This document shows positions 12,048-21,301 of a DNA stretch of 64,000 nt, one piece after another. A program made the translations under genes and the position numbers. The number at the start of each line of letters is the position of its first letter. Positions within the stretch are counted from its first letter, which is position 1. The notes under the pieces were generated by a model. That model was not told the DNA's origin. It was given only the letters and a program-made list of their open reading frames with translations, and ran no database searches. The DNA lies in the NCBI GenBank assembly GCA_000242935.3, contig CP007053.1, positions 7,053,001 through 7,117,000 on the forward strand, in the 5' to 3' direction. Source of the DNA: Opitutaceae bacterium TAV5. Lineage in GTDB: Bacteria > Verrucomicrobiota > Verrucomicrobiia > Opitutales > Opitutaceae.

Positions 12048-12236
12048 GAATGGCGCTTAGTTAAGCCGTCTCTCCGTTGAAAACCAGTGACTTCCCAAAG
12101 CCATGAAAAAACGTGAAACCCGTCCAACCTTTTGAGAGGGAAACCCCTCTGGAATCCGGGCCAACATTGAGATCGATTCATGCATTGGAAATTACCTCTC
12201 AAAACGACGGAAAACCGCCTTAACTAAGCGCCATTC
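12048..12236. mobile_element. 189-bp MITE with 18-bp terminal inverted repeats
   Basis: Ends are GAATGGCGCTTAGTTAAG (12048-12065) and its exact complement (12219-12236). Both sides carry the 11-bp direct repeat GGGTCATGGTG (12037-12047 and 12237-12247), i.e. a target-site duplication. The homologous leader at 27.68 kb has the uninterrupted site with one copy. There is no coding capacity. An 11-bp duplication fits IS4-type transposases; a parent element is not in the window. Confidence 0.85.
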
Positions 12237-13197: not shown

Positions 13198-13203
13198 GAA
13201 TTG

Positions 13204-13302
13204 GCCGAACAAGGTGATGCAGCCTACTCCGGTAAGAGTCATACCCTGTGCTTACGCACAGGCCGCGCCACTTACCTCCATGGCTGATCTTCGACGTTAG
13301 GC
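13204..13302 (+). repeat. attC-type site 1
   Basis: Starts with GCCGAAC (R'') and ends with GTTAGGC (R'); the 99 bp between fold as imperfect palindromic arms (GGTGATGCAGCC, and GGCTGATCTTCGAC near the end). Confidence 0.85.
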
Positions 13303-13309
13303 AAATATC

Positions 13310-13810
13310 ATGAGCACTCCTCAAAGATACAAAGCGAATTGGTGCAAATCTCTTGTTGTCATTACATCTGTAGTGAGTCTTTTCCTCATCGGATTAGCAT
13401 GGTTTTCCATCAGGAATGGACACCCACCGGTTTCGCTTCCCGTCATTCTTCCAGTCGCAATTATCCTGCTAACCGTTCCGTTTCTCATCAGAGGTTACAC
13501 CATCGCCACCGACGCTATCCTTGTGCACCGTTTATTCTGGAATACCAAGTTGCCATTTCAGGGATTGCGCTCAGTTGAGGTTGATCCCAAGGCCATGGAT
13601 CATTGTATGCGTCTTTGCGGTAACGGTGGCCTTTTCTCCATCACTGGATTTTTCTACAATAGTCGGTTTGGCATGTTTCGCGCATTTGCAACCGATCCCC
13701 AAAAATCAGTGATTCTTTACTACAAAAAGCGCCCCATCATTATCTCTCCTGAGTCTCCGGAGGAGTTTGTCAGGAATCTTGAAATCAAAAGAAAAGAAGA
13801 AGGAGCCTGA
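13310..13810 (+). CDS. Cassette gene: two-span membrane protein with PH-like domain
   Basis: 166 residues. Two adjacent membrane helices lie at about residues 15-34 and 43-61. After them come RGYTIATDAILVHRLFWNTKLPFQGLRSVEVDP and a beta-rich stretch ending VILYYKKRPIIISPESPEEFV, the pattern of bacterial PH (bPH/YdbT-like) domains attached to the membrane. The role is unknown. Its stop codon overlaps the start of attC site 2, typical of cassette genes. Confidence 0.7.
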   Translation: MSTPQRYKANWCKSLVVITSVVSLFLIGLAWFSIRNGHPPVSLPVILPVAIILLTVPFLIRGYTIATDAILVHRLFWNTKLPFQGLRSVEVDPKAMDHCMRLCGNGGLFSITGFFYNSRFGMFRAFATDPQKSVILYYKKRPIIISPESPEEFVRNLEIKRKEEGA

Positions 13811-13873
13811 CAAGGCGCCAGAGCCAATGCCTTTGCTGCCTGTCACAGCCATGGCTGATCTTTGACGTTCGGT
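13805..13873 (+). repeat. attC-type site 2
   Basis: 69 bp from GCCTGAC to GTTCGGT; internal arms CAAGGCGCCAGAGCC and GGCTGATCTTTGAC. Short form of the same family. Confidence 0.8.
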
Positions 13874-13884
13874 AAAATCAGAAT

Positions 13885-14157
13885 ATGAGCACATCCAAGA
13901 TACAGAAAATCGGACGCGGCCTGAAAGCAGCGGCGAAGACATTTGTTACAGTTCCGGTAGAATTTACGATTTCAGGAAAGCAGATTCGCTGTCCGCATTG
14001 TGGGCATACGAAGTTCGATCAGCAGGATATTCTCATGAATACGCGTGGCGCTACTTTCGTGAACATGGATTGGCTGAATCGAAATGCGACTGCCCTCATA
14101 TGTAAGAAATGCAGCCGAATCGAATGGTTTAATAACCCACCTGAATCCCTATCATAA
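13885..14157 (+). CDS. Cassette gene: small zinc-ribbon protein
   Basis: 90 residues with a CPHC ... CKKC pair spaced about 36 residues apart, a treble-clef or zinc-ribbon arrangement (RCPHCGHTKFDQQDILMNTRG, then NATALICKKCSRIEWF). The WF-NP ending resembles small proteins annotated as DNA-binding YgzB-like zinc ribbons. A basic N-terminus (KIQKIGRGLKAAAK) may bind nucleic acid. Third gene of the left array, flanked by attC sites 2 and 3. Confidence 0.7.
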   Translation: MSTSKIQKIGRGLKAAAKTFVTVPVEFTISGKQIRCPHCGHTKFDQQDILMNTRGATFVNMDWLNRNATALICKKCSRIEWFNNPPESLS

Positions 14158-14169
14158 AAAAGCAAGCCC

Positions 14170-14277
14170 GCCTAACAAGTCGCTAGAGCCAATGCGATTG
14201 TTGCTACGCAGGTGCCCGGAAAGCATTTTCGGCATTTATGAGTCTCCCGCTCGCATGGCTCATCTCGAACGTTAGGC
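14170..14277 (+). repeat. attC-type site 3
   Basis: 108 bp from GCCTAAC to GTTAGGC; arms CAAGTCGCTAGAGCC and GGCTCATCTCGAAC. Confidence 0.85.
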
Positions 14278-14285
14278 AGAAATCC

Positions 14286-14675
14286 ATGAAATTCTTGGAA
14301 TATATAGCATTGGGAGCATTTGTAATCTCTTTCGGACTGCCCGCCTTTTCGGACTTTTCAGGGTGGCAATGCCTATGGGTGTGCGCAAACGCCCTCACAG
14401 GTGACGATTTTCAGGGGCTCTCACGTATTTATTACTTTGGATTTACCGCTGTTAATCTCGGATTCTTTCCGCTCTTTATTCGCGCCCTTCGAGGGAATTA
14501 TTCACACGGTTATTTTATCACCAGCATCTTAGCCACGCTCTATGTGATCTCTTGGCCCACTTTGCTCCTCGTATCCTCGGACTGGAGCGACCTAAGAATT
14601 GGTTACTTCGTATGGCTCGCCAGTTTTGCGATCATTTCATTTATTTTAAGACCCAAAAAGAAGAAAGGAGCCTAA
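14286..14675 (+). CDS. Cassette gene: four-span membrane protein
   Basis: 129 residues with four hydrophobic helices separated by short polar loops and a basic tail (RPKKKKGA), so the C-terminus should be cytosolic. No family recognised. The ATG at 14286 lies 8 bp after the core site, while the longer open frame upstream is only translated attC. The stop codon lies within the R'' core of attC site 4. AT-rich compared with the backbone. Confidence 0.7.
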   Translation: MKFLEYIALGAFVISFGLPAFSDFSGWQCLWVCANALTGDDFQGLSRIYYFGFTAVNLGFFPLFIRALRGNYSHGYFITSILATLYVISWPTLLLVSSDWSDLRIGYFVWLASFAIISFILRPKKKKGA

Positions 14676-14773
14676 CAAAGCAAAGCAATGCAGCCAATTC
14701 CGGTAGCTATCACGTCCCATGCTGTCGCATGCGACGCGCCATCTATTTCCATGGCTGATCTTGGACGTTGATC
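14670..14773 (+). repeat. attC-type site 4
   Basis: 104 bp from GCCTAAC to GTTGATC; the R' core is degenerate. Highly similar to the right-array sites at 24943, 25812 and 26643 when those are reverse-complemented. Confidence 0.8.
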
Positions 14774-14817
14774 TAGCTGCGATTCTGCAAGAGGGAAAAA
14801 GCAGTGGCAGCCCAATG

Positions 14818-14919
14818 ATTTATCAGGTATCTGTTTATATAAACTATTTTGCCGATGGAGGCACAGGACAGGGACCGGTCGATTATAGGATAAACGCGTG
14901 CGTGGGTTGGTTGGCGTGA
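14818..14919 (+). CDS. Possible 33-residue cassette ORF before the IS110 element
   Basis: A short frame beginning MIYQVSVYINYFADGG right after attC site 4. It has the size and place of a cassette gene, but no attC in the normal orientation follows before the IS110 element. It may be the stump of a cassette broken by IS insertion or deletion. The remaining bases to 15142 contain no gene; an attC-like stretch in the reverse direction may lie at about 15034-15101. Confidence 0.25.
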   Translation: MYQVSVYINYFADGGTGQGPVDYRINACVGWLA

Positions 14920-15142
14920 TCCTGGCTGTAAACCGTGATCGTGCTGATCTACGCGGGTTGGTTACCGACAGTTCATTGGTGCGTCTTGCCCGCATGCCCT
15001 AGGCTCGTGCGTGGCGGACGGATAGGCTCCGATACCGCTGCCCCTAACGTCAACATGCATGGGCCGGCCGCCCGGTCCCTGACTTGTGCCGCCATTCGGC
15101 CTTTGAAAGAACATCCTCCCCCTCTTCGCAGACGTGGTTGGC

Positions 15143-16267
15143 TTATGCGCAGCGAGTCATATGATCCCAGTCGACGGTTTTGAGCATGGCCCAGACAAAG
15201 CCGGCCATTTCGCGAGCGAGGGCCACGGTGATTTTGGGCTTCATCACGCCGCGCCGGCTCAGGTGCCATGCGCGGCTGTGCAGCCGCAACTGGACCTTCC
15301 AAGCCAATTCTTTTCTGTGCACGGGCTGGCCTTCCTGCCGTTTGGACAAGTGCGCGGAGACCTTGGGCGGTAACCAGGCGTGCTGGACCATTTCGACCAG
15401 TATCCAGCGCGCATGGGCGTTGCCGGCCTTGGTGATCGAACCGAGTTTGCGGGTTTGCCCCGAGCTTTCCTCCTTGGGCACTAGCCCAAGAAACGCCATC
15501 AGGTCACGCGGATGAGTAAACCTGCGTATATCGCCCAACTCTGCGACCAGCACGGCTGCGGCGACCAATTGAACGCCACGCAGCGTCATCAGAGCCTCGA
15601 CCGCCGGATACAAGCGCCACAAGGGCGCCTGCAATTCCAGCAATTGCTCCAGCCGGTTCACCCGGTCCTCGCACTGACTGATGGCCAAAAGGTATTCCTC
15701 GAGCACCGCCTTGAGCCCCGGCAACGGCAACACCAGCTCTCGCAGATACCGACGGTGCGCCTCACTCCAGTTCGCCTTGCCCGAGTAACGATAACCATGA
15801 CGCAACAAAAACGACTTGAGGCGCTGCCGGGCCCGCGTCAGGTCGTGCACCGCGTCCGCCCTGGCCCGGGTCAAATCGCGCATGGCTTCGTCCGCCGCGT
15901 CCGGCACGTGCACGGCGGTCAACTCCCCGGCCCGGTGCAACCGCGCCAGCATCTGTGCATCCCGGCGGTCCGTCTTGCGCCGTGCCGCCTTGTCCACCGG
16001 CGTCTTCGATGCAGCCACCACCACGCACTCAATCTGTAATTGCATCAACCGGCGATAAATCACGTAGCCGGTCGGCCCCGCCTCGTAGGCCACGTGCAAT
16101 GCCCCGCCGTCCGATCCGATCTTCCTTAACGCCTTCTCTATGGCGTGCAAATCATTGCTGATCTGCCCGTAAAGGCGAACCTCGCCCTCGCGGCCGCCAT
16201 CGGCCACCGCCACCATCACTGTATCTTTGTGGACATCCAGTCCAACATAGTGCTCTGTCTTTCTCAT
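15143..16267 (-). CDS. IS110-family transposase (DEDD recombinase)
   Basis: 374 residues. The N-terminal RuvC-like DEDD domain shows D11 (VGLDVHKD), E62 (YEAGPTGY) and D100/D103 (RKTDRRDAQ). The C-terminal Tnp_20 domain has MTLRGVQLVAAAVLVAELGDIRRF, then LGLVPKEESSGQTRKLGSITKAGN, which contains the likely catalytic serine. IS110 enzymes act with a bridge RNA made from the element's non-coding end. The frame is intact and may be active. It lies inside the left cassette array, antisense to the cassettes. Confidence 0.93.
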   Translation of the reverse strand: MRKTEHYVGLDVHKDTVMVAVADGGREGEVRLYGQISNDLHAIEKALRKIGSDGGALHVAYEAGPTGYVIYRRLMQLQIECVVVAASKTPVDKAARRKTDRRDAQMLARLHRAGELTAVHVPDAADEAMRDLTRARADAVHDLTRARQRLKSFLLRHGYRYSGKANWSEAHRRYLRELVLPLPGLKAVLEEYLLAISQCEDRVNRLEQLLELQAPLWRLYPAVEALMTLRGVQLVAAAVLVAELGDIRRFTHPRDLMAFLGLVPKEESSGQTRKLGSITKAGNAHARWILVEMVQHAWLPPKVSAHLSKRQEGQPVHRKELAWKVQLRLHSRAWHLSRRGVMKPKITVALAREMAGFVWAMLKTVDWDHMTRCA

Positions 16268-16362
16268 GCGCTTGTCCTCGTTTTCAGGTTGTTTGGGTTA
16301 TACTCTCAGCCTTGTGGATAGGCCCCGCTTCCCGGGGCAACCCACGCTTAGGGGACAAGCGC
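16268..16362 (-). ncRNA. Candidate IS110 bridge RNA (element 5' non-coding end)
   Basis: Directly upstream of the transposase start, on its strand, a 10-bp perfect stem (GCGCTTGTCC at 16353-16362 as read on the minus strand, pairing with 16268-16277) closes a structured region. Inside is a strong hairpin, GCCCCG-GGAAG-CGGGGC (16322-16338), plus GTGGGTT/AACCCA pairing. Multi-hairpin RNA just upstream of the recombinase matches the IS110-group bridge RNA location. The fold was done by eye; guide loops are not assigned. Confidence 0.5.
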
Positions 16363-16469
16363 TTCCTTTTACAGATCGCTCTTGCCCTCAGCTATAATGT
16401 CTAGGCAAGATCATGATCCAATGAATCCACAGTCATTTGTTATATTACCGATTATTGCGGGGACAATCG

Positions 16470-16536
16470 TCACTTTGATGCCTGCATTATACTTTGTTAT
16501 ATCTTCATAAAAGATGAAAAATAAGGAGATTTCATT
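16470..16536 (+). promoter_or_regulatory. Probable promoter and RBS of the acetyltransferase gene
   Basis: A TTGATG hexamer is followed about 17 bp later by TATATC, with an overlapping TATACT. AAGGAG then lies about 8 bp before the ATG at 16537. The region is AT-rich and unlike the compact cassette leaders, suggesting this gene brings its own promoter. Confidence 0.4.
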
Positions 16537-17097
16537 ATGACGGAAAAAGAAAAATCGCATGCTGGAATGTTATATCAGCCCGGTGACCCTGAGCTTGTAT
16601 CAGATCGTGACATTACCATCAAAAAGCTGTATAATTACAATAAATTGAATCCACTCGACCGTGATGCACGACAAATTGCTATACGCGAGTTGTTAGGCAA
16701 GGCTGGAGATAACTGCGTTGTGGAGCAACCGCTTTTTTGCACTTATGGGTATAATACGGAGGTGGGCGATAATTTTTTCCTCAACGTCAATTGCAAGCTT
16801 ATGGACAGCGGGAAAATCACAATTGGAAATAACGTATTCATTGCACCAAATGTCTGCATTATAACAGAAGAACATGCAATGGATGTCAGACAACGCTTGG
16901 CAGGATTGGAGTATACCCACCCAGTAAATATCGGTGACAATGTGTGGATTTGTGCAGGAGCGATTATATTGCCGGGGGTAACTATCAGTGAGAACAGTGT
17001 AATCGGTGCAGGCAGTGTCGTTACAAAAGACATTCCGCCAAATAGTTTGGCTGTTGGCAATCCCTGCAAAATAATCCGCACACTAACAAACGAGTAG
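16537..17097 (+). CDS. Sugar O-acetyltransferase (maltose/galactoside acetyltransferase type)
   Basis: 186 residues, the standard length of Maa/LacA/NodL enzymes, which move acetyl from acetyl-CoA to a sugar hydroxyl. It has the N-terminal Mac domain (MLYQPGDPELVSDR, then KLYNYNKLNP), then left-handed beta-helix hexapeptide repeats. Catalytic His is in TEEHAMD, and the C-terminal NSVIGAGSVVTKDIPPNSLAVGNPCK is classic. Base composition is AT-rich and the RBS strong, resembling Firmicutes genes, so recent transfer is likely. It lies between the IS110 element and a degenerate attC-like stretch. Confidence 0.9.
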   Translation: MTEKEKSHAGMLYQPGDPELVSDRDITIKKLYNYNKLNPLDRDARQIAIRELLGKAGDNCVVEQPLFCTYGYNTEVGDNFFLNVNCKLMDSGKITIGNNVFIAPNVCIITEEHAMDVRQRLAGLEYTHPVNIGDNVWICAGAIILPGVTISENSVIGAGSVVTKDIPPNSLAVGNPCKIIRTLTNE

Positions 17098-17161
17098 TCT
17101 TTCTTTGACTTGTATTGTCCAATCGCGATCTTGCCCTTGTGGCCAGATCGACGCTGGCAGA

Positions 17162-17216
17162 CGCCAACAAGCAGCGGGGCTGGCGGATGTGGCAGGACCT
17201 GGGCCAAACGTTGATA
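17162..17216 (+). repeat. Degenerate attC-like stretch after the acetyltransferase
   Basis: CGCCAACAAGCAGCGGGGC... runs to CCAAACGTTGATA; the AACAAG-GC and AACGTTGAT ends resemble the family's R'' and R' boxes. It is much poorer than the other sites and could be chance. Confidence 0.3.
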
Positions 17217-17269
17217 TGCAAGGCGCGTCCTCTTTACGCGGGGTAAGACCTGGTAAGACATTGACGACC

Positions 17270-17473
17270 CCACGTTACGGTGGCGTTCTGGTTGGACCGT
17301 CCTTTCTGCGTCAGGTATTCAATGATACGGAATCGGAGGTTTTGTGGCTTATCGTCGGGGCTCCCGACAAAGAATTTGAGTCCGGCAAGGTTGACTTAAG
17401 GCAGTTTTATCCGGTCGAGCCTACTCAGCTTCCTGTCGAACTGGAAGACGTCGCTTGGCCATCAAAAGAATAA
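17270..17473 (+). pseudogene. 3' remnant of a cupin-domain gene
   Basis: The reading frame from about 17270 gives YGGVLVGPSFLRQVFNDTES, then VLWLIVGAPDKEFES and LRQFYPVEPTQLPVELEDV. This is the C-terminal strand and tail of a common cupin protein whose usual length is about 150 residues. The N-terminal two-thirds, with the metal-binding motif, are missing; the upstream part of the open frame (from 17105) does not look like protein. A good attC site follows, so it is a cassette truncated at its 5' side, probably with the IS110/acetyltransferase insertion. Confidence 0.65.
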
Positions 17474-17478
17474 AATGA

Positions 17479-17593
17479 GCCTAACAAGGCGCTACAGACA
17501 ACGACCCGCAGCTCCCCCGACTCCGCCTATCTTTTCTCGATGCGATTCATCTCAGTATTCTATGCGGGTCGCGTCTGACCTTGAACGTTAGGC
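17479..17593 (+). repeat. attC-type site 5
   Basis: 115 bp from GCCTAAC to GTTAGGC; arms CAAGGCGCTACAGAC and GTCTGACCTTGAAC. The central part is longer than in its neighbours. Confidence 0.85.
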
Positions 17594-17600
17594 AAATATC

Positions 17601-18065
17601 ATGAAATACTGGATTCGAATCGATAATTGTGAATTTGGCCTACGTACTTTTGGCCCACTGAGCAAAGAAGATATCGTGAGATTTTATGGTAATGAAGTCA
17701 CTTCTAAAACACCCTGTTGTGCGGTTGGCGAAAATCAATGGCATGACATTATAGAAATACTGCCAGAAATCCTTGATCCGGCACAAAGGGAATTACTTAA
17801 GTCAGCTCCTGAGCCGACCGCCCCAGCAACGAATCCAAAAGATGATATCCACGAAAAAAAGCTGAGAAAGACTTTATTGTATATTGCTTGTGCCACATTG
17901 ATAGCCCCATTTATTTTATGGACGGCAGCCTATCGGTGGCTTGTCGATCCGTGGGCAGCTATATTGCTTGGTGTTATATCCGCCACTTCGATTATCGTAG
18001 CATTTATCCTTTTTCAGATTCTCTTCATCACCCGGAATCGAAGCAAAAAGAGACAAGCCGCCTGA
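17601..18065 (+). CDS. Cassette gene: GYF_2-like domain plus two membrane spans
   Basis: 154 residues. The N-terminus (KYWIRIDNCEFGLRTFGPLS, with a later W48 HDI) matches the GYF_2-type fold that recognises peptides at membranes. A Pro/Ala linker leads to a charged helix and two membrane helices near residues 92-110 and 119-140. It ends in a basic tail. The function is unknown. A GYF_2-type protein also occurs in the GTPase operon of the nearby island (40277), but the two are not close paralogues. Confidence 0.65.
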   Translation: MKYWIRIDNCEFGLRTFGPLSKEDIVRFYGNEVTSKTPCCAVGENQWHDIIEILPEILDPAQRELLKSAPEPTAPATNPKDDIHEKKLRKTLLYIACATLIAPFILWTAAYRWLVDPWAAILLGVISATSIIVAFILFQILFITRNRSKKRQAA

Positions 18066-18158
18066 CAAGGCGCTGGAGCCGACGTCCGTATCTGTCACGC
18101 ATCCTGCTGTCGCAGGCCGCGAGCCAGCTATGGCCTCCGCTCACCTTTAACATTCGGT
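18060..18158 (+). repeat. attC-type site 6
   Basis: 99 bp from GCCTGAC to ATTCGGT; R' is degenerate. The central hairpin CATCCTGCTGTCGCAGG is visible. Confidence 0.75.
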
Positions 18159-18165
18159 AAAAATC

Positions 18166-18603
18166 ATGACAGACGCTAGCCTGGAGCTCCCAATCGACAA
18201 GGACGCCGCCTACAAGCACTTGTGGGCCACAACTCTTACGTGGTCGCTTGTCGGGTGTATCTACCTTGGTGCAGGTCTGTTCTTTCTCCTATGGGCATAT
18301 CTGAATCGGGGAAGAATGCGACGCTGGTGTTACGAAACGAATGCCACCCTGACCCGGTCAGAACTAATCATCAGGCGGCACTCGTTCTCCAGGACGATTA
18401 CTTACATACCATTCAAAAAAATCGGGCATATCACCATTACGCAAGGTCCCTACCTAAGAAAATATAAAATATGCAATATTCAGATAGGATGTAACGATCA
18501 GGCTGGCGGAAGGCTGGTCAGTCATCTTATACCTGCTGTCCCGGAAGACAAAGCAGAAGATGTTGTTTCGCTGCTCCGTAAGCGAATGGAAGCAGAAACA
18601 TGA
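18166..18603 (+). CDS. Cassette gene: one-span membrane protein with bPH_2-like domain
   Basis: 145 residues. A single membrane helix lies at about residues 24-45. Then WCYETNATLTRSELIIRRHS, TITYIPFKKIGHITITQGPY and NIQIGCNDQA follow the strand order of bPH_2 (YdbS-like) domains, in which a PH fold sits at the membrane. The C-terminal helix VPEDKAEDVVSLLRKRM fits the domain end. Second PH-type membrane cassette protein in the same array. Confidence 0.7.
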   Translation: MTDASLELPIDKDAAYKHLWATTLTWSLVGCIYLGAGLFFLLWAYLNRGRMRRWCYETNATLTRSELIIRRHSFSRTITYIPFKKIGHITITQGPYLRKYKICNIQIGCNDQAGGRLVSHLIPAVPEDKAEDVVSLLRKRMEAET

Positions 18604-18613
18604 AAACCAGGAA

Positions 18614-18662
18614 GCCCGACAAAGCGATGCGGCCGACCCCGGTAGCTGATCTTCGACGCCAG
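18614..18662 (+). repeat. Degenerate, shortened attC-like site 7
   Basis: Begins GCCCGACAAAGCGATGCGG and passes into GCTGATCTTCGACGCCAGCC, so both ends of the family consensus are present but the centre is deleted and R' is lost. Probably not recombinogenic. Confidence 0.5.
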
Positions 18663-18703
18663 CCAGAAACGAGGGCGATGCATCTCATCCCAAGGGTAAT
18701 TCA

Positions 18704-19227: not shown

Positions 19228-19358
19228 TAAAGCCGTGGCTCATCCTGGACACGCCCCCCAGGCTCACGCCCAAAGATAAAGAACAGAGAGCGCAGCGACA
19301 TGTTTCAGGCCCAACTGGAAGCTTCCTGACCTAGAACAGTCCGTCCCGTCCGTTACGA

Positions 19359-19387
19359 AGCCCTGATGTAACCTTCAGGGCTTTTTT
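19359..19387 (+). terminator. Rho-independent terminator before the island
   Basis: AGCCCTGA/TCAGGGCT stem (19359-19366 and 19375-19382) followed by TTTTTT. About 40 bp including the flanks match the terminator at 21241-21270 in inverse orientation. The rest of 19228-19537 holds no gene. Confidence 0.85.
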
Positions 19388-19537
19388 GTGCCCTCTCGCT
19401 TTGATCCGCAGCAGGAACCTGCGTCCTCGAAAAAATCGTTCCTCCTCCTGGTCAGCCCGCATTTGCTGTTTTTCAGCGCAGCCAGATTTTCCCGAGTCCT
19501 GACCCTCTCTCCGGAATTCCGTAACCCTTTTTTGGTG

Positions 19538-19612
19538 AAGTGGTGCCAGAGGGCAGGATTGAACTGCCGACCAAGGGCTTATGAGTCCCCTGCTCTACCA
19601 CTGAGCTACTCT
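19538..19612 (-). repeat. attL-side copy: 75-bp tRNA-Met remnant
   Basis: Identical over 75 bp to 48164-48238. It contains the tRNA 3' end with CCA and the CAT anticodon, but the 5' acceptor strand is CGAAAAG instead of GCCAGAG and cannot pair, so it should not give a mature tRNA. Left boundary of the island. Confidence 0.92.
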
Positions 19613-19682
19613 TTTCGGTCTTGATCTTTTTTTGCCGTTTTCAGAGGCATTTTCAGAGGTAAATCGAAGAAAATCGAAATCG

Positions 19683-21200
19683 ATGAAAACGGTAAAAAAG
19701 ACGCTACCAATCTCAGAAATTGGCAGGGAATTGGCAGGGGAATTGCCTGAAAATATGTCCCCTGCCAATTTGAGTGCTCGCCCAAAAGCCCGCCTTTCCA
19801 AAGCCCATCCCGACTATTGGGTGAGTCGCATCTACCGGGACACTTACTCCGACGGGAACGGCAATCGCGTCGAGTTACCCGAATTTTGCGTGCGCATCCT
19901 CTTTAATGGCAAACGAGGCTATTTTCCGCTCCGTGAGGCCAACAAAGCCAAGGCATCGACCAAAGCCCGAGACATCTATGCATCGCTCGTCGCCAACGGA
20001 TGGGATGTCACGCAGGCCAAGTATCATCCTGAAGCCACGAAGAAGATCATCTACCCCACGGTTGGCGAATTTCTGGACGCCGTCAAAGCCATCACCAGCG
20101 TCTCGGCCACCTGCTTTGCCACTTATTCCCGGAAATTCCGTCATGTCGTAGCGAGCGTCATGGGCATTGAGGCTCCCAAGGAAAAACGCCCTGAAATCAA
20201 TCCGGTAACCGGACAACAAATGAGGAACCGCAAGACGGGTAAGCTGAAATTCCGCGTGGTCGATCTTCGCTACGACTACGTCCACGGAGGAGCCAAGAAA
20301 TGGCGAGCCTCCATTGATGCCGTTCGCCTCGACAAGATCACGTCCGAGAAAGTGCAGCAGTGGATCGCCTCTCGTCTCCAGGATGTCTCCGACAACCCTG
20401 CCAAACTGGCATCAACCAAGATCACCCTCAATAGCCAGCTCAGGGCGGCAGGCAGCCTTTTCACGCCTCGCATCCTGAAGCATCTGAAACACCTCTCCCT
20501 GCCCGCTCCACTGCCCCTCGCAGACGTAGAGCGGCCACCTGCCACCCGCAAGCGTTACGTTTCTCGTGTCTCGGTAGAAATCCTCCACGCAAAGGCCGAA
20601 GCCGAACTGAAAGGTGCGACCGGAGACGACGCCGACGACCGCCAGCAAATGTTCACTATTTACCTTTTGGCCCTGTTCGCCGGCCTTCGTCGTGACGAAA
20701 TCGATACACTCACATGGCAGCAGATCGACTTCGATAACGGCCGGGTTTTTGTGGAAACGAACGAACACACCACCGCCAAGAGCGAACACAGCGAGGACTT
20801 CGTCATGCTTGCGCCAGAAGTTGTCGTTCACCTCAAAGAACGCTTCAAGGCGCGTCGCTCTCAATTCGTTATCGAGTCACCCGTGGAACCCAAGCCCGGC
20901 GTCAGCTATTATCACTACCGCTGCAATCGCCTGCAAACGCGCCTCATTGAATGGCTGCGCGAAAGCACAGGGATCACGGATGACAAACCGCTCCACATGT
21001 TGCGCAAGGAGTTTGGCTCCTTCATCGCCAAAAAGTTCGGGATTTTTGCCGCCTCTGAAGCATTGAGACATGGTGATATTCGCCTCACAAGGGACTACTA
21101 CCTGTCGAAAGATCGCAGAGCCACGTTTGGGCCAGCTTCGTTGAGTGCAGTCACCGCGCCAAGTGAAAGCGCTGAACCCAATGCACCAGTATCAACGTAA
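19683..21200 (+). CDS. Tyrosine recombinase (island integrase)
   Basis: 505 residues from the ATG at 19683 (ATG 19755 is an alternative; the open frame begins with TTG at 19632). Catalytic residues: first Arg in AGLRRDEIDTLTW, HxxR in LHMLRKEFGS, second His in LRHGDI, and nucleophile Tyr in TRDYYLSKD. An N-terminal SAM-like/arm domain precedes them. It catalyses site-specific integration and excision. It is far longer than IntI (about 330 aa) and lacks the features of integron integrases. It sits 70 bp from the tRNA remnant; two arm-like repeats fall in its first codons, which may couple expression to excision. Confidence 0.93.
   Translation: MKTVKKTLPISEIGRELAGELPENMSPANLSARPKARLSKAHPDYWVSRIYRDTYSDGNGNRVELPEFCVRILFNGKRGYFPLREANKAKASTKARDIYASLVANGWDVTQAKYHPEATKKIIYPTVGEFLDAVKAITSVSATCFATYSRKFRHVVASVMGIEAPKEKRPEINPVTGQQMRNRKTGKLKFRVVDLRYDYVHGGAKKWRASIDAVRLDKITSEKVQQWIASRLQDVSDNPAKLASTKITLNSQLRAAGSLFTPRILKHLKHLSLPAPLPLADVERPPATRKRYVSRVSVEILHAKAEAELKGATGDDADDRQQMFTIYLLALFAGLRRDEIDTLTWQQIDFDNGRVFVETNEHTTAKSEHSEDFVMLAPEVVVHLKERFKARRSQFVIESPVEPKPGVSYYHYRCNRLQTRLIEWLRESTGITDDKPLHMLRKEFGSFIAKKFGIFAASEALRHGDIRLTRDYYLSKDRRATFGPASLSAVTAPSESAEPNAPVST
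19720..19768. other. Left arm-type repeats of the island integrase
   Basis: TTGGCAGGG (19720) and TTGGCAGGGG (19731) are 11 bp apart in direct orientation, then an inverted copy CCCCTGCCAA lies at 19759-19768. The same pair recurs with the same 11-bp pitch at 48087 and 48098. Position 100-150 bp from the core repeat suits integrase arm sites. Confidence 0.6.
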
Positions 21201-21240
21201 AATGCCTGTTCTCGTCGCCTCACGAGAAATATGAAGGCAC

Positions 21241-21270
21241 AAAAAAGCCCTGACGGTATGCATCAGGGCT
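21241..21270 (-). terminator. Terminator of the HTH-protein gene
   Basis: On the minus strand AGCCCTGA...TCAGGGCT followed by TTTTTT; ends the 21302 gene. Nearly identical to the terminator at 19359. Confidence 0.85.
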
Positions 21271-21301
21271 TCGCAACGAATGAGGCTGATTTGATTTCAG
21301 A

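What the first reader, a model, noticed from the sequence alone, without database searches (positions are those of the whole stretch)
16268..16362. Candidate bridge RNA of an IS110 element inside the cassette array
Just upstream of the transposase is a closed stem of ten pairs, a GC-rich hairpin and further pairing, the place of the bridge RNA in IS110-group elements. The element is intact and antisense to the cassettes. Its ends are not defined by sequence here, and a reverse attC-like stretch lies at its 3' side, so it may target cassette DNA.
Basis: partly seen in the sequence, partly recalled or inferred. Interest (0 to 1): 0.6.

Follow-up and report, generated by a model that had tools for sequence, protein, structure and literature searches.

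The report
Transposase leader hairpin, not bridge RNA
The hairpin next to this mobile element's transposase gene is real and conserved, but it is most likely the start of the transposase message and controls its translation, while the RNA that guides the element into integron attC sites is encoded at the other end of the element.

Summary
The structure at 16268-16362 (minus strand) is real: a 10-bp stem closes a GC-rich hairpin (z -3.7, no shuffle of 200 folds as well), and its arms coevolve across 40 related elements (0 of 20,000 swaps as stable). It is not the bridge RNA. Five copies in the genome define the element as 14770-16402 (1633 bp, minus strand), inserted in one orientation in attC sites. 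The guides are in the 3' non-coding end (RE, 14770-15142): a target loop with GACGTTAGG and GCCTAG facing each other, and a donor guide TAGATCAG matching the circle junction. Across 40 elements these track each element's own target and own ends (0 of 20,000 permutations for the target right half and for the donor junction); the 5' leader shows no comparable signal. Alphaproteobacterial relatives have other targets and correspondingly changed guides. The leader stem ends within 0-7 nt of the transposase start codon, or encloses it. It most likely controls transposase translation, as the structured leader of ISPpu9 does. The transposase clade (with ISSfr2, ISSso6, ISEc45) lies apart from the sampled IS1111 transposases but has IS1111-like ends and guide order. 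Nothing was tested experimentally.

The parts
14770..16402 (-). whole insertion sequence (1633 bp), 5' end at 16402 (AGACATT), 3' end at 14770 (GATC)
   Evidence: five copies in the genome with different flanks; ends set by the joined attC target and by relatives
16268..16402 (-). left end / 5' leader of the transposase gene (135 nt)
16268..16362 (-). conserved leader structure: 10-bp outer stem (16353-16362 with 16268-16277) and inner hairpin; the 3' arm abuts the ATG and holds part of the likely Shine-Dalgarno GAGG
   Evidence: fold; arm coevolution; distance to start codon; covariance model
15143..16267 (-). transposase, 374 aa, DEDD_Tnp_IS110 + Transposase_20, motif GLVPKEESSG
14770..15142 (-). 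right end / 3' non-coding end (373 nt) that encodes the guide RNA
14860..15084 (-). predicted guide (bridge/seek) RNA core, closed by CAGGGACCGG / CCGGTCCCTG
   Evidence: alignment A1 and consensus fold; the single-sequence fold is not better than shuffles
15043..15051 (-). target guide 1 GACGTTAGG, complementary to the top strand of the joined target CCT|AACGTC
14999..15004 (-). target guide 2 GCCTAG, identical to the left junction GCCT|AG; faces guide 1 in the same internal loop
14944..14951 (-). donor guide TAGATCAG, identical to the predicted circle junction TAGATC|AG
16386..16395 (-). left subterminal inverted repeat (ATAGCTGAGG), 7 bp from the left end
14773..14782 (-). right subterminal inverted repeat (TCGCAGCTAG), 3 bp from the right end
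   Evidence: up to 12 bp perfect in relatives such as L030 (sequences)
14785..14790 (-). possible -35 TTGCAG, which in the circle would lie 18 bp from CATTAT (16394-16399)
   Evidence: reading of the sequence only; inferred junction promoter, not tested

Best explanation
The 95-nt structure is the folded 5' leader of the transposase mRNA of an attC-targeting DEDD insertion sequence. Its outer stem holds the ribosome-binding region and ends at the start codon, so by default it keeps transposase translation low, and something (the transposase, the guide RNA or an antisense RNA) opens or stabilises it. The element finds its target with a separate guide RNA from its 3' end: two target guides face each other in one loop and pair with the two strands of the attC R' site, and a donor guide pairs with the joined ends of the excised circle. 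Shown: ends, attC targeting in one orientation, guide location and its tracking of targets and ends, and coevolution and position of the leader stem. Inferred: that the leader is transcribed, that it represses translation, that the guide RNA binds the transposase, and the circle intermediate.
For: Guide location: the complement of the right half of each element's own target occurs in its own RE (z 8.0, 0/20,000 permutations; z 5.5, 0/20,000 in the 14 non-attC relatives alone) and shows no such signal in the LE (z -2.2). Identity across the left junction in the non-attC set: 1/20,000 in RE, nothing in LE. Circle-junction identity: 0/20,000 in RE, nothing in LE. attC targeting. Leader: own stem arms pair at -31.0 versus -24.6 kcal/mol for swapped arms, 0/20,000; 8 of 31 predicted pairs have compensatory changes within Opitutaceae-type elements; a model built only from those elements finds the leader at the same place in Azospirillum and other families; the 3' arm lies 0-7 nt from the start codon in most elements. 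Precedent: in ISPpu9, another IS110-family element, mutations that weaken the leader structure raised a reporter 26-fold (PMC8450116).
Against: No transcript or translation data. In the L059/L070 group the stem closes beyond the start codon, so the element is not a simple Shine-Dalgarno block everywhere. The few non-Watson-Crick pairs in the outer stem are mostly C.A or A.C in the sense strand (10, against 2 G.U), and the opposite strand of the region folds somewhat better; both would fit an antisense RNA. The inner hairpin has a sense G.U pair in most of the closer relatives, which points the other way. Permutation tests do not fully correct for relatedness of the elements. In the attC set alone the separate left-half guide test is not significant, where targets hardly vary.
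Confidence: 0.66

Rival explanations
1. The LE structure is itself the bridge RNA, as the first reader proposed and as in the IS110/IS621 group.
For: Position upstream of the transposase and a conserved covarying structure, as in IS621 (PMC11208160).
Against: No match to target or donor tracks the element in the LE, while the RE has target and donor guides at conserved places. Relatives with different targets show the change in the RE.
Confidence: 0.03
2. The leader is a second RNA partner of the system: it pairs with the RE guide RNA (CGNGGGUU with AACCCNCG) or mimics part of it and is bound by the transposase, giving feedback between guide level and transposase level.
For: The LE motif is complementary to conserved RE segments, up to 11 consecutive pairs (L059, L094); own pairs are better than swapped ones (z about -3, 10 to 22 of 20,000).
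Against: The test does not correct for relatedness. Several own pairs carry mismatches, and the complementary RE segment differs between Verrucomicrobiota and alphaproteobacteria.
Confidence: 0.15
3. The functional molecule is an antisense RNA from the LE (like Asr9 of ISPpu9), read on the + strand of the window.
For: The + strand folds more stably than the - strand; sense C.A and A.C mismatches, which are G.U in the antisense RNA, outnumber sense G.U 10 to 2; Asr9 precedent (PMC8450116).
Against: Few independent events; the inner hairpin has a sense G.U in most closer relatives; no conserved antisense promoter was looked for systematically.
Confidence: 0.1
4. The LE structure acts at the DNA level, as a folded or double-stranded binding site for the transposase during excision.
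For: It lies in the LE, 40-135 bp from the end; the motif reappears inverted in the RE of some elements.
Against: Short IS ends suffice in studied relatives (PMC11187229: mini-IS with LE of 29-84 bp); the structure is tied to the start codon rather than to the IS end.
Confidence: 0.06

Closest known systems
IS1111-attC group (ISKpn4, ISPst6, ISPa25)
   Same: DEDD transposase; insertion in attC in one orientation; guide RNA in the 3' NCR with the top-strand complement before the bottom-strand match; subterminal inverted repeats
   Different: The transposase clade lies far from the sampled IS1111 transposases (IS4321, IS5708, ISShdy1), is 360-381 aa rather than 330-350, has a large structured LE leader as well, and the attC-targeting members found here are all in Verrucomicrobiota. 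No ISKpn4-type sequence was compared directly.
ISSfr2 / ISSso6 / ISEc45 type elements
   Same: Same transposase clade (44-51% identity; 100/100 support). The ISSfr2-annotated copy (L083) shows the same ends, RE guide layout and LE leader; most of the relatives L084-L094 likewise.
   Different: ISSfr2-type relatives have other, non-attC targets, with guides changed to match. Ends were not worked out for ISSso6 and ISEc45.
IS110 group with upstream bridge RNA (IS621, ISEc21)
   Same: Transposase domains; RNA-guided by target and donor pairing; circle intermediate presumed
   Different: Guide RNA upstream there, downstream here; order of the target guides reversed; the LE here carries a leader structure without guides
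ISPpu9 structured 5'-UTR with Asr9/Ssr9
   Same: Structured transposase leader that includes the ribosome-binding site in an IS110-family element
   Different: No antisense RNA shown here; sequence relation between the leaders was not tested

Membership tests
IS110 superfamily (DEDD transposases) | DEDD_Tnp_IS110 and Transposase_20 domains | tested here: met
IS110 group (bridge RNA in LE) | guide RNA upstream of the transposase gene | tested here: not met
   guides in RE, none in LE
IS1111 family | guide RNA / NCR downstream of the transposase gene | tested here: met
   RE 373 nt
IS1111 family | top-strand complement precedes bottom-strand match in the guide RNA | tested here: met
   guide 1 (15043-15051) lies 5' of guide 2 (14999-15004) on the minus strand
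IS1111 family | subterminal inverted repeats of 11-13 bp with 7 bp and 3 bp extensions | tested here: inconclusive
   7/3 extensions fit; the repeat is imperfect and about 8 bp here, 8-12 bp in relatives
IS1111 family | transposase of 330-350 aa within the IS1111 clade | tested here: not met
   374 aa; separate 100/100 clade; long branches make the exact placement unsure
attC-targeting IS | copies inserted in attC in one orientation | tested here: met
   5 of 5 copies in this genome and the Verrucomicrobiota relatives
bridge RNA / seekRNA | RNA bound by the transposase and required for transposition | not testable with these tools
   needs RNA co-purification and transposition assays
ISPpu9-type translational leader | leader structure represses translation | not testable with these tools
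   only position and coevolution of the stem were tested

The most novel reading that the evidence does not exclude
The leader is a dedicated regulatory RNA partner conserved across a whole DEDD transposase clade: it pairs with, or mimics part of, the RE guide RNA or is bound by the transposase, so that translation of the transposase is set by the amount of free guide RNA.
Probability: 0.15. Interest if true: 0.65.

Novelty: new variant of a known kind. Interest (0 to 1): 0.45.

Why it matters
It places the guide of an RNA-guided transposase correctly and shows that a covarying structure upstream of an IS110-type gene need not be the bridge RNA. It documents what appears to be a second lineage of guide-RNA elements that attack attC sites, in Verrucomicrobiota, with relatives naturally redirected to other targets. 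It also gives a testable, widely conserved leader structure that may set transposase dose, which would matter for anyone using these recombinases.

Tried and rejected
Rfam found nothing credible in the element. The viral contig scan gave no relative. A first guide test that required exact matches spanning the junction by 2 nt on each side was weak for guide 1 (1750/20,000), because in non-attC relatives guide 1 covers mainly the right half; the local test on each half replaced it. The single-sequence fold of the RE core is not better than shuffles (z 0.27), and its consensus shows little covariation because it is so conserved, so the RE case rests on guide tracking, not on folding. A core CT dinucleotide as in IS621 was considered for the ends and dropped, because the right junction GATC|AACG does not fit it. 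L087's model hit is away from the leader and was ignored.

Full report
Observation. The stem and hairpin described at 16268-16362 exist on the minus strand, just upstream of an intact 374-aa IS110-type transposase. The 95 nt fold at -39.8 kcal/mol, z -3.68, with no shuffle of 200 as stable.

Element and target. The genome (an Opitutaceae-related Verrucomicrobiota, judged from its relatives) holds five nearly identical copies. Aligned with their flanks, all five start after ...GCCT or a variant of it and end before AACGT..., inside an attC site and in the same orientation. The window copy is 14770-16402, 1633 bp. The same junctions occur in relatives of 46-84% protein identity from several families of the class. 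The right flanks pair with a downstream attC arm better than shifted controls do (-24.6 against -18.4 kcal/mol), whereas non-attC relatives do not. An integron integrase lies at G000:C1:464656, about 3 kb from one copy and outside this window.

Where the guide is. Published work puts the guide RNA mostly upstream in the IS110 group and downstream in IS1111, with the order of the two target guides reversed (PMC11187229, PMC11208160). Here both ends are non-coding (LE 135 nt, RE 373 nt). For 40 elements with both flanks known, including 14 relatives with other targets, I asked whether each element's own target is better matched by its own RE or LE than other elements' targets are. The complement of the right half of the target is in the RE (z 8.0, 0/20,000; non-attC set alone z 5.5, 0/20,000) and not in the LE (z -2.2). 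Identity across the left junction in the non-attC set is in the RE (1/20,000) and not in the LE. Identity with the circle junction is in the RE (0/20,000) and not in the LE. Clear redirections: L085 target AGATGTTTC, guide GAAACATCTA; L089 guide TCGATGGAACT, 11 of 11; L092 14 nt across the left junction. In the consensus fold of the RE the two target guides face each other in one internal loop region. This is the IS1111 order.

What the LE structure is. Its outer stem changes sequence between families yet stays paired: own arms -31.0, swapped arms -24.6 kcal/mol, 0/20,000. Within the closer group 8 of 31 pairs show compensatory changes. A covariance model from that group alone finds the leader at the right place in several other families, with E-values from 3e-6 to about 0.5, and not in the sampled IS1111 elements. 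The 3' arm ends 0-7 nt from the start codon in most elements, and in one group the stem encloses it. The simplest reading is a leader that limits translation initiation, as shown for ISPpu9 (PMC8450116). Which strand acts, and what releases it, are open.

Kinship. The tree puts the window protein with other Verrucomicrobiota elements, and these with ISSfr2, ISSso6, ISEc45 and a Leptospira element (100/100), apart from IS4321, IS5708 and ISShdy1. The element works like an IS1111-attC element but fails the transposase criterion for IS1111, so I do not file it there. Since attC-targeting IS1111 elements are described in another transposase lineage, a separate origin of attC targeting is likely, but was not tested against ISKpn4 itself.

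Limits. Everything is comparative sequence analysis. Permutations treat elements as exchangeable, although many are related. Some flanks come from draft genomes. Some stem arms were picked by eye from the duplexes.

Noticed in passing
window 16537-17097 (+): Cassette gene for a hexapeptide acetyltransferase (Mac and Hexapep domains), next to the element.
   Followed up: partly
window 19340-21289: A 522-aa ORF that looks like a tyrosine recombinase (19632-21200, not classified here) lies beside a tRNA (19548-19612) and between two pairs of imperfect inverted repeats (19340-19395 and 21233-21289); it looks like a separate mobile unit.
   Followed up: no
window 12048-12077 and 12207-12236: Inverted repeat of 30 nt, 87% complementary, 129 nt apart.
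   Followed up: no
window cassette array, about 13200-18700: attC sites without an integron integrase in the window; the only match over the family cut-off in the genome is at G000:C1:464656.
   Followed up: partly
L019, L020, L022, L023: Degenerate copies in genome G046 with interrupted transposase frames, a leader deletion (L019) and fragments, all at attC junctions.
   Followed up: partly
L059, L094 and others (LE and RE): The leader motif GGGUU is complementary to conserved RE segments, up to 11 nt; the meaning is unknown.
   Followed up: partly
L033 (Gemmatimonadales): A 40%-identical transposase has a leader with the same CGTGGGTT hairpin motif.
   Followed up: no
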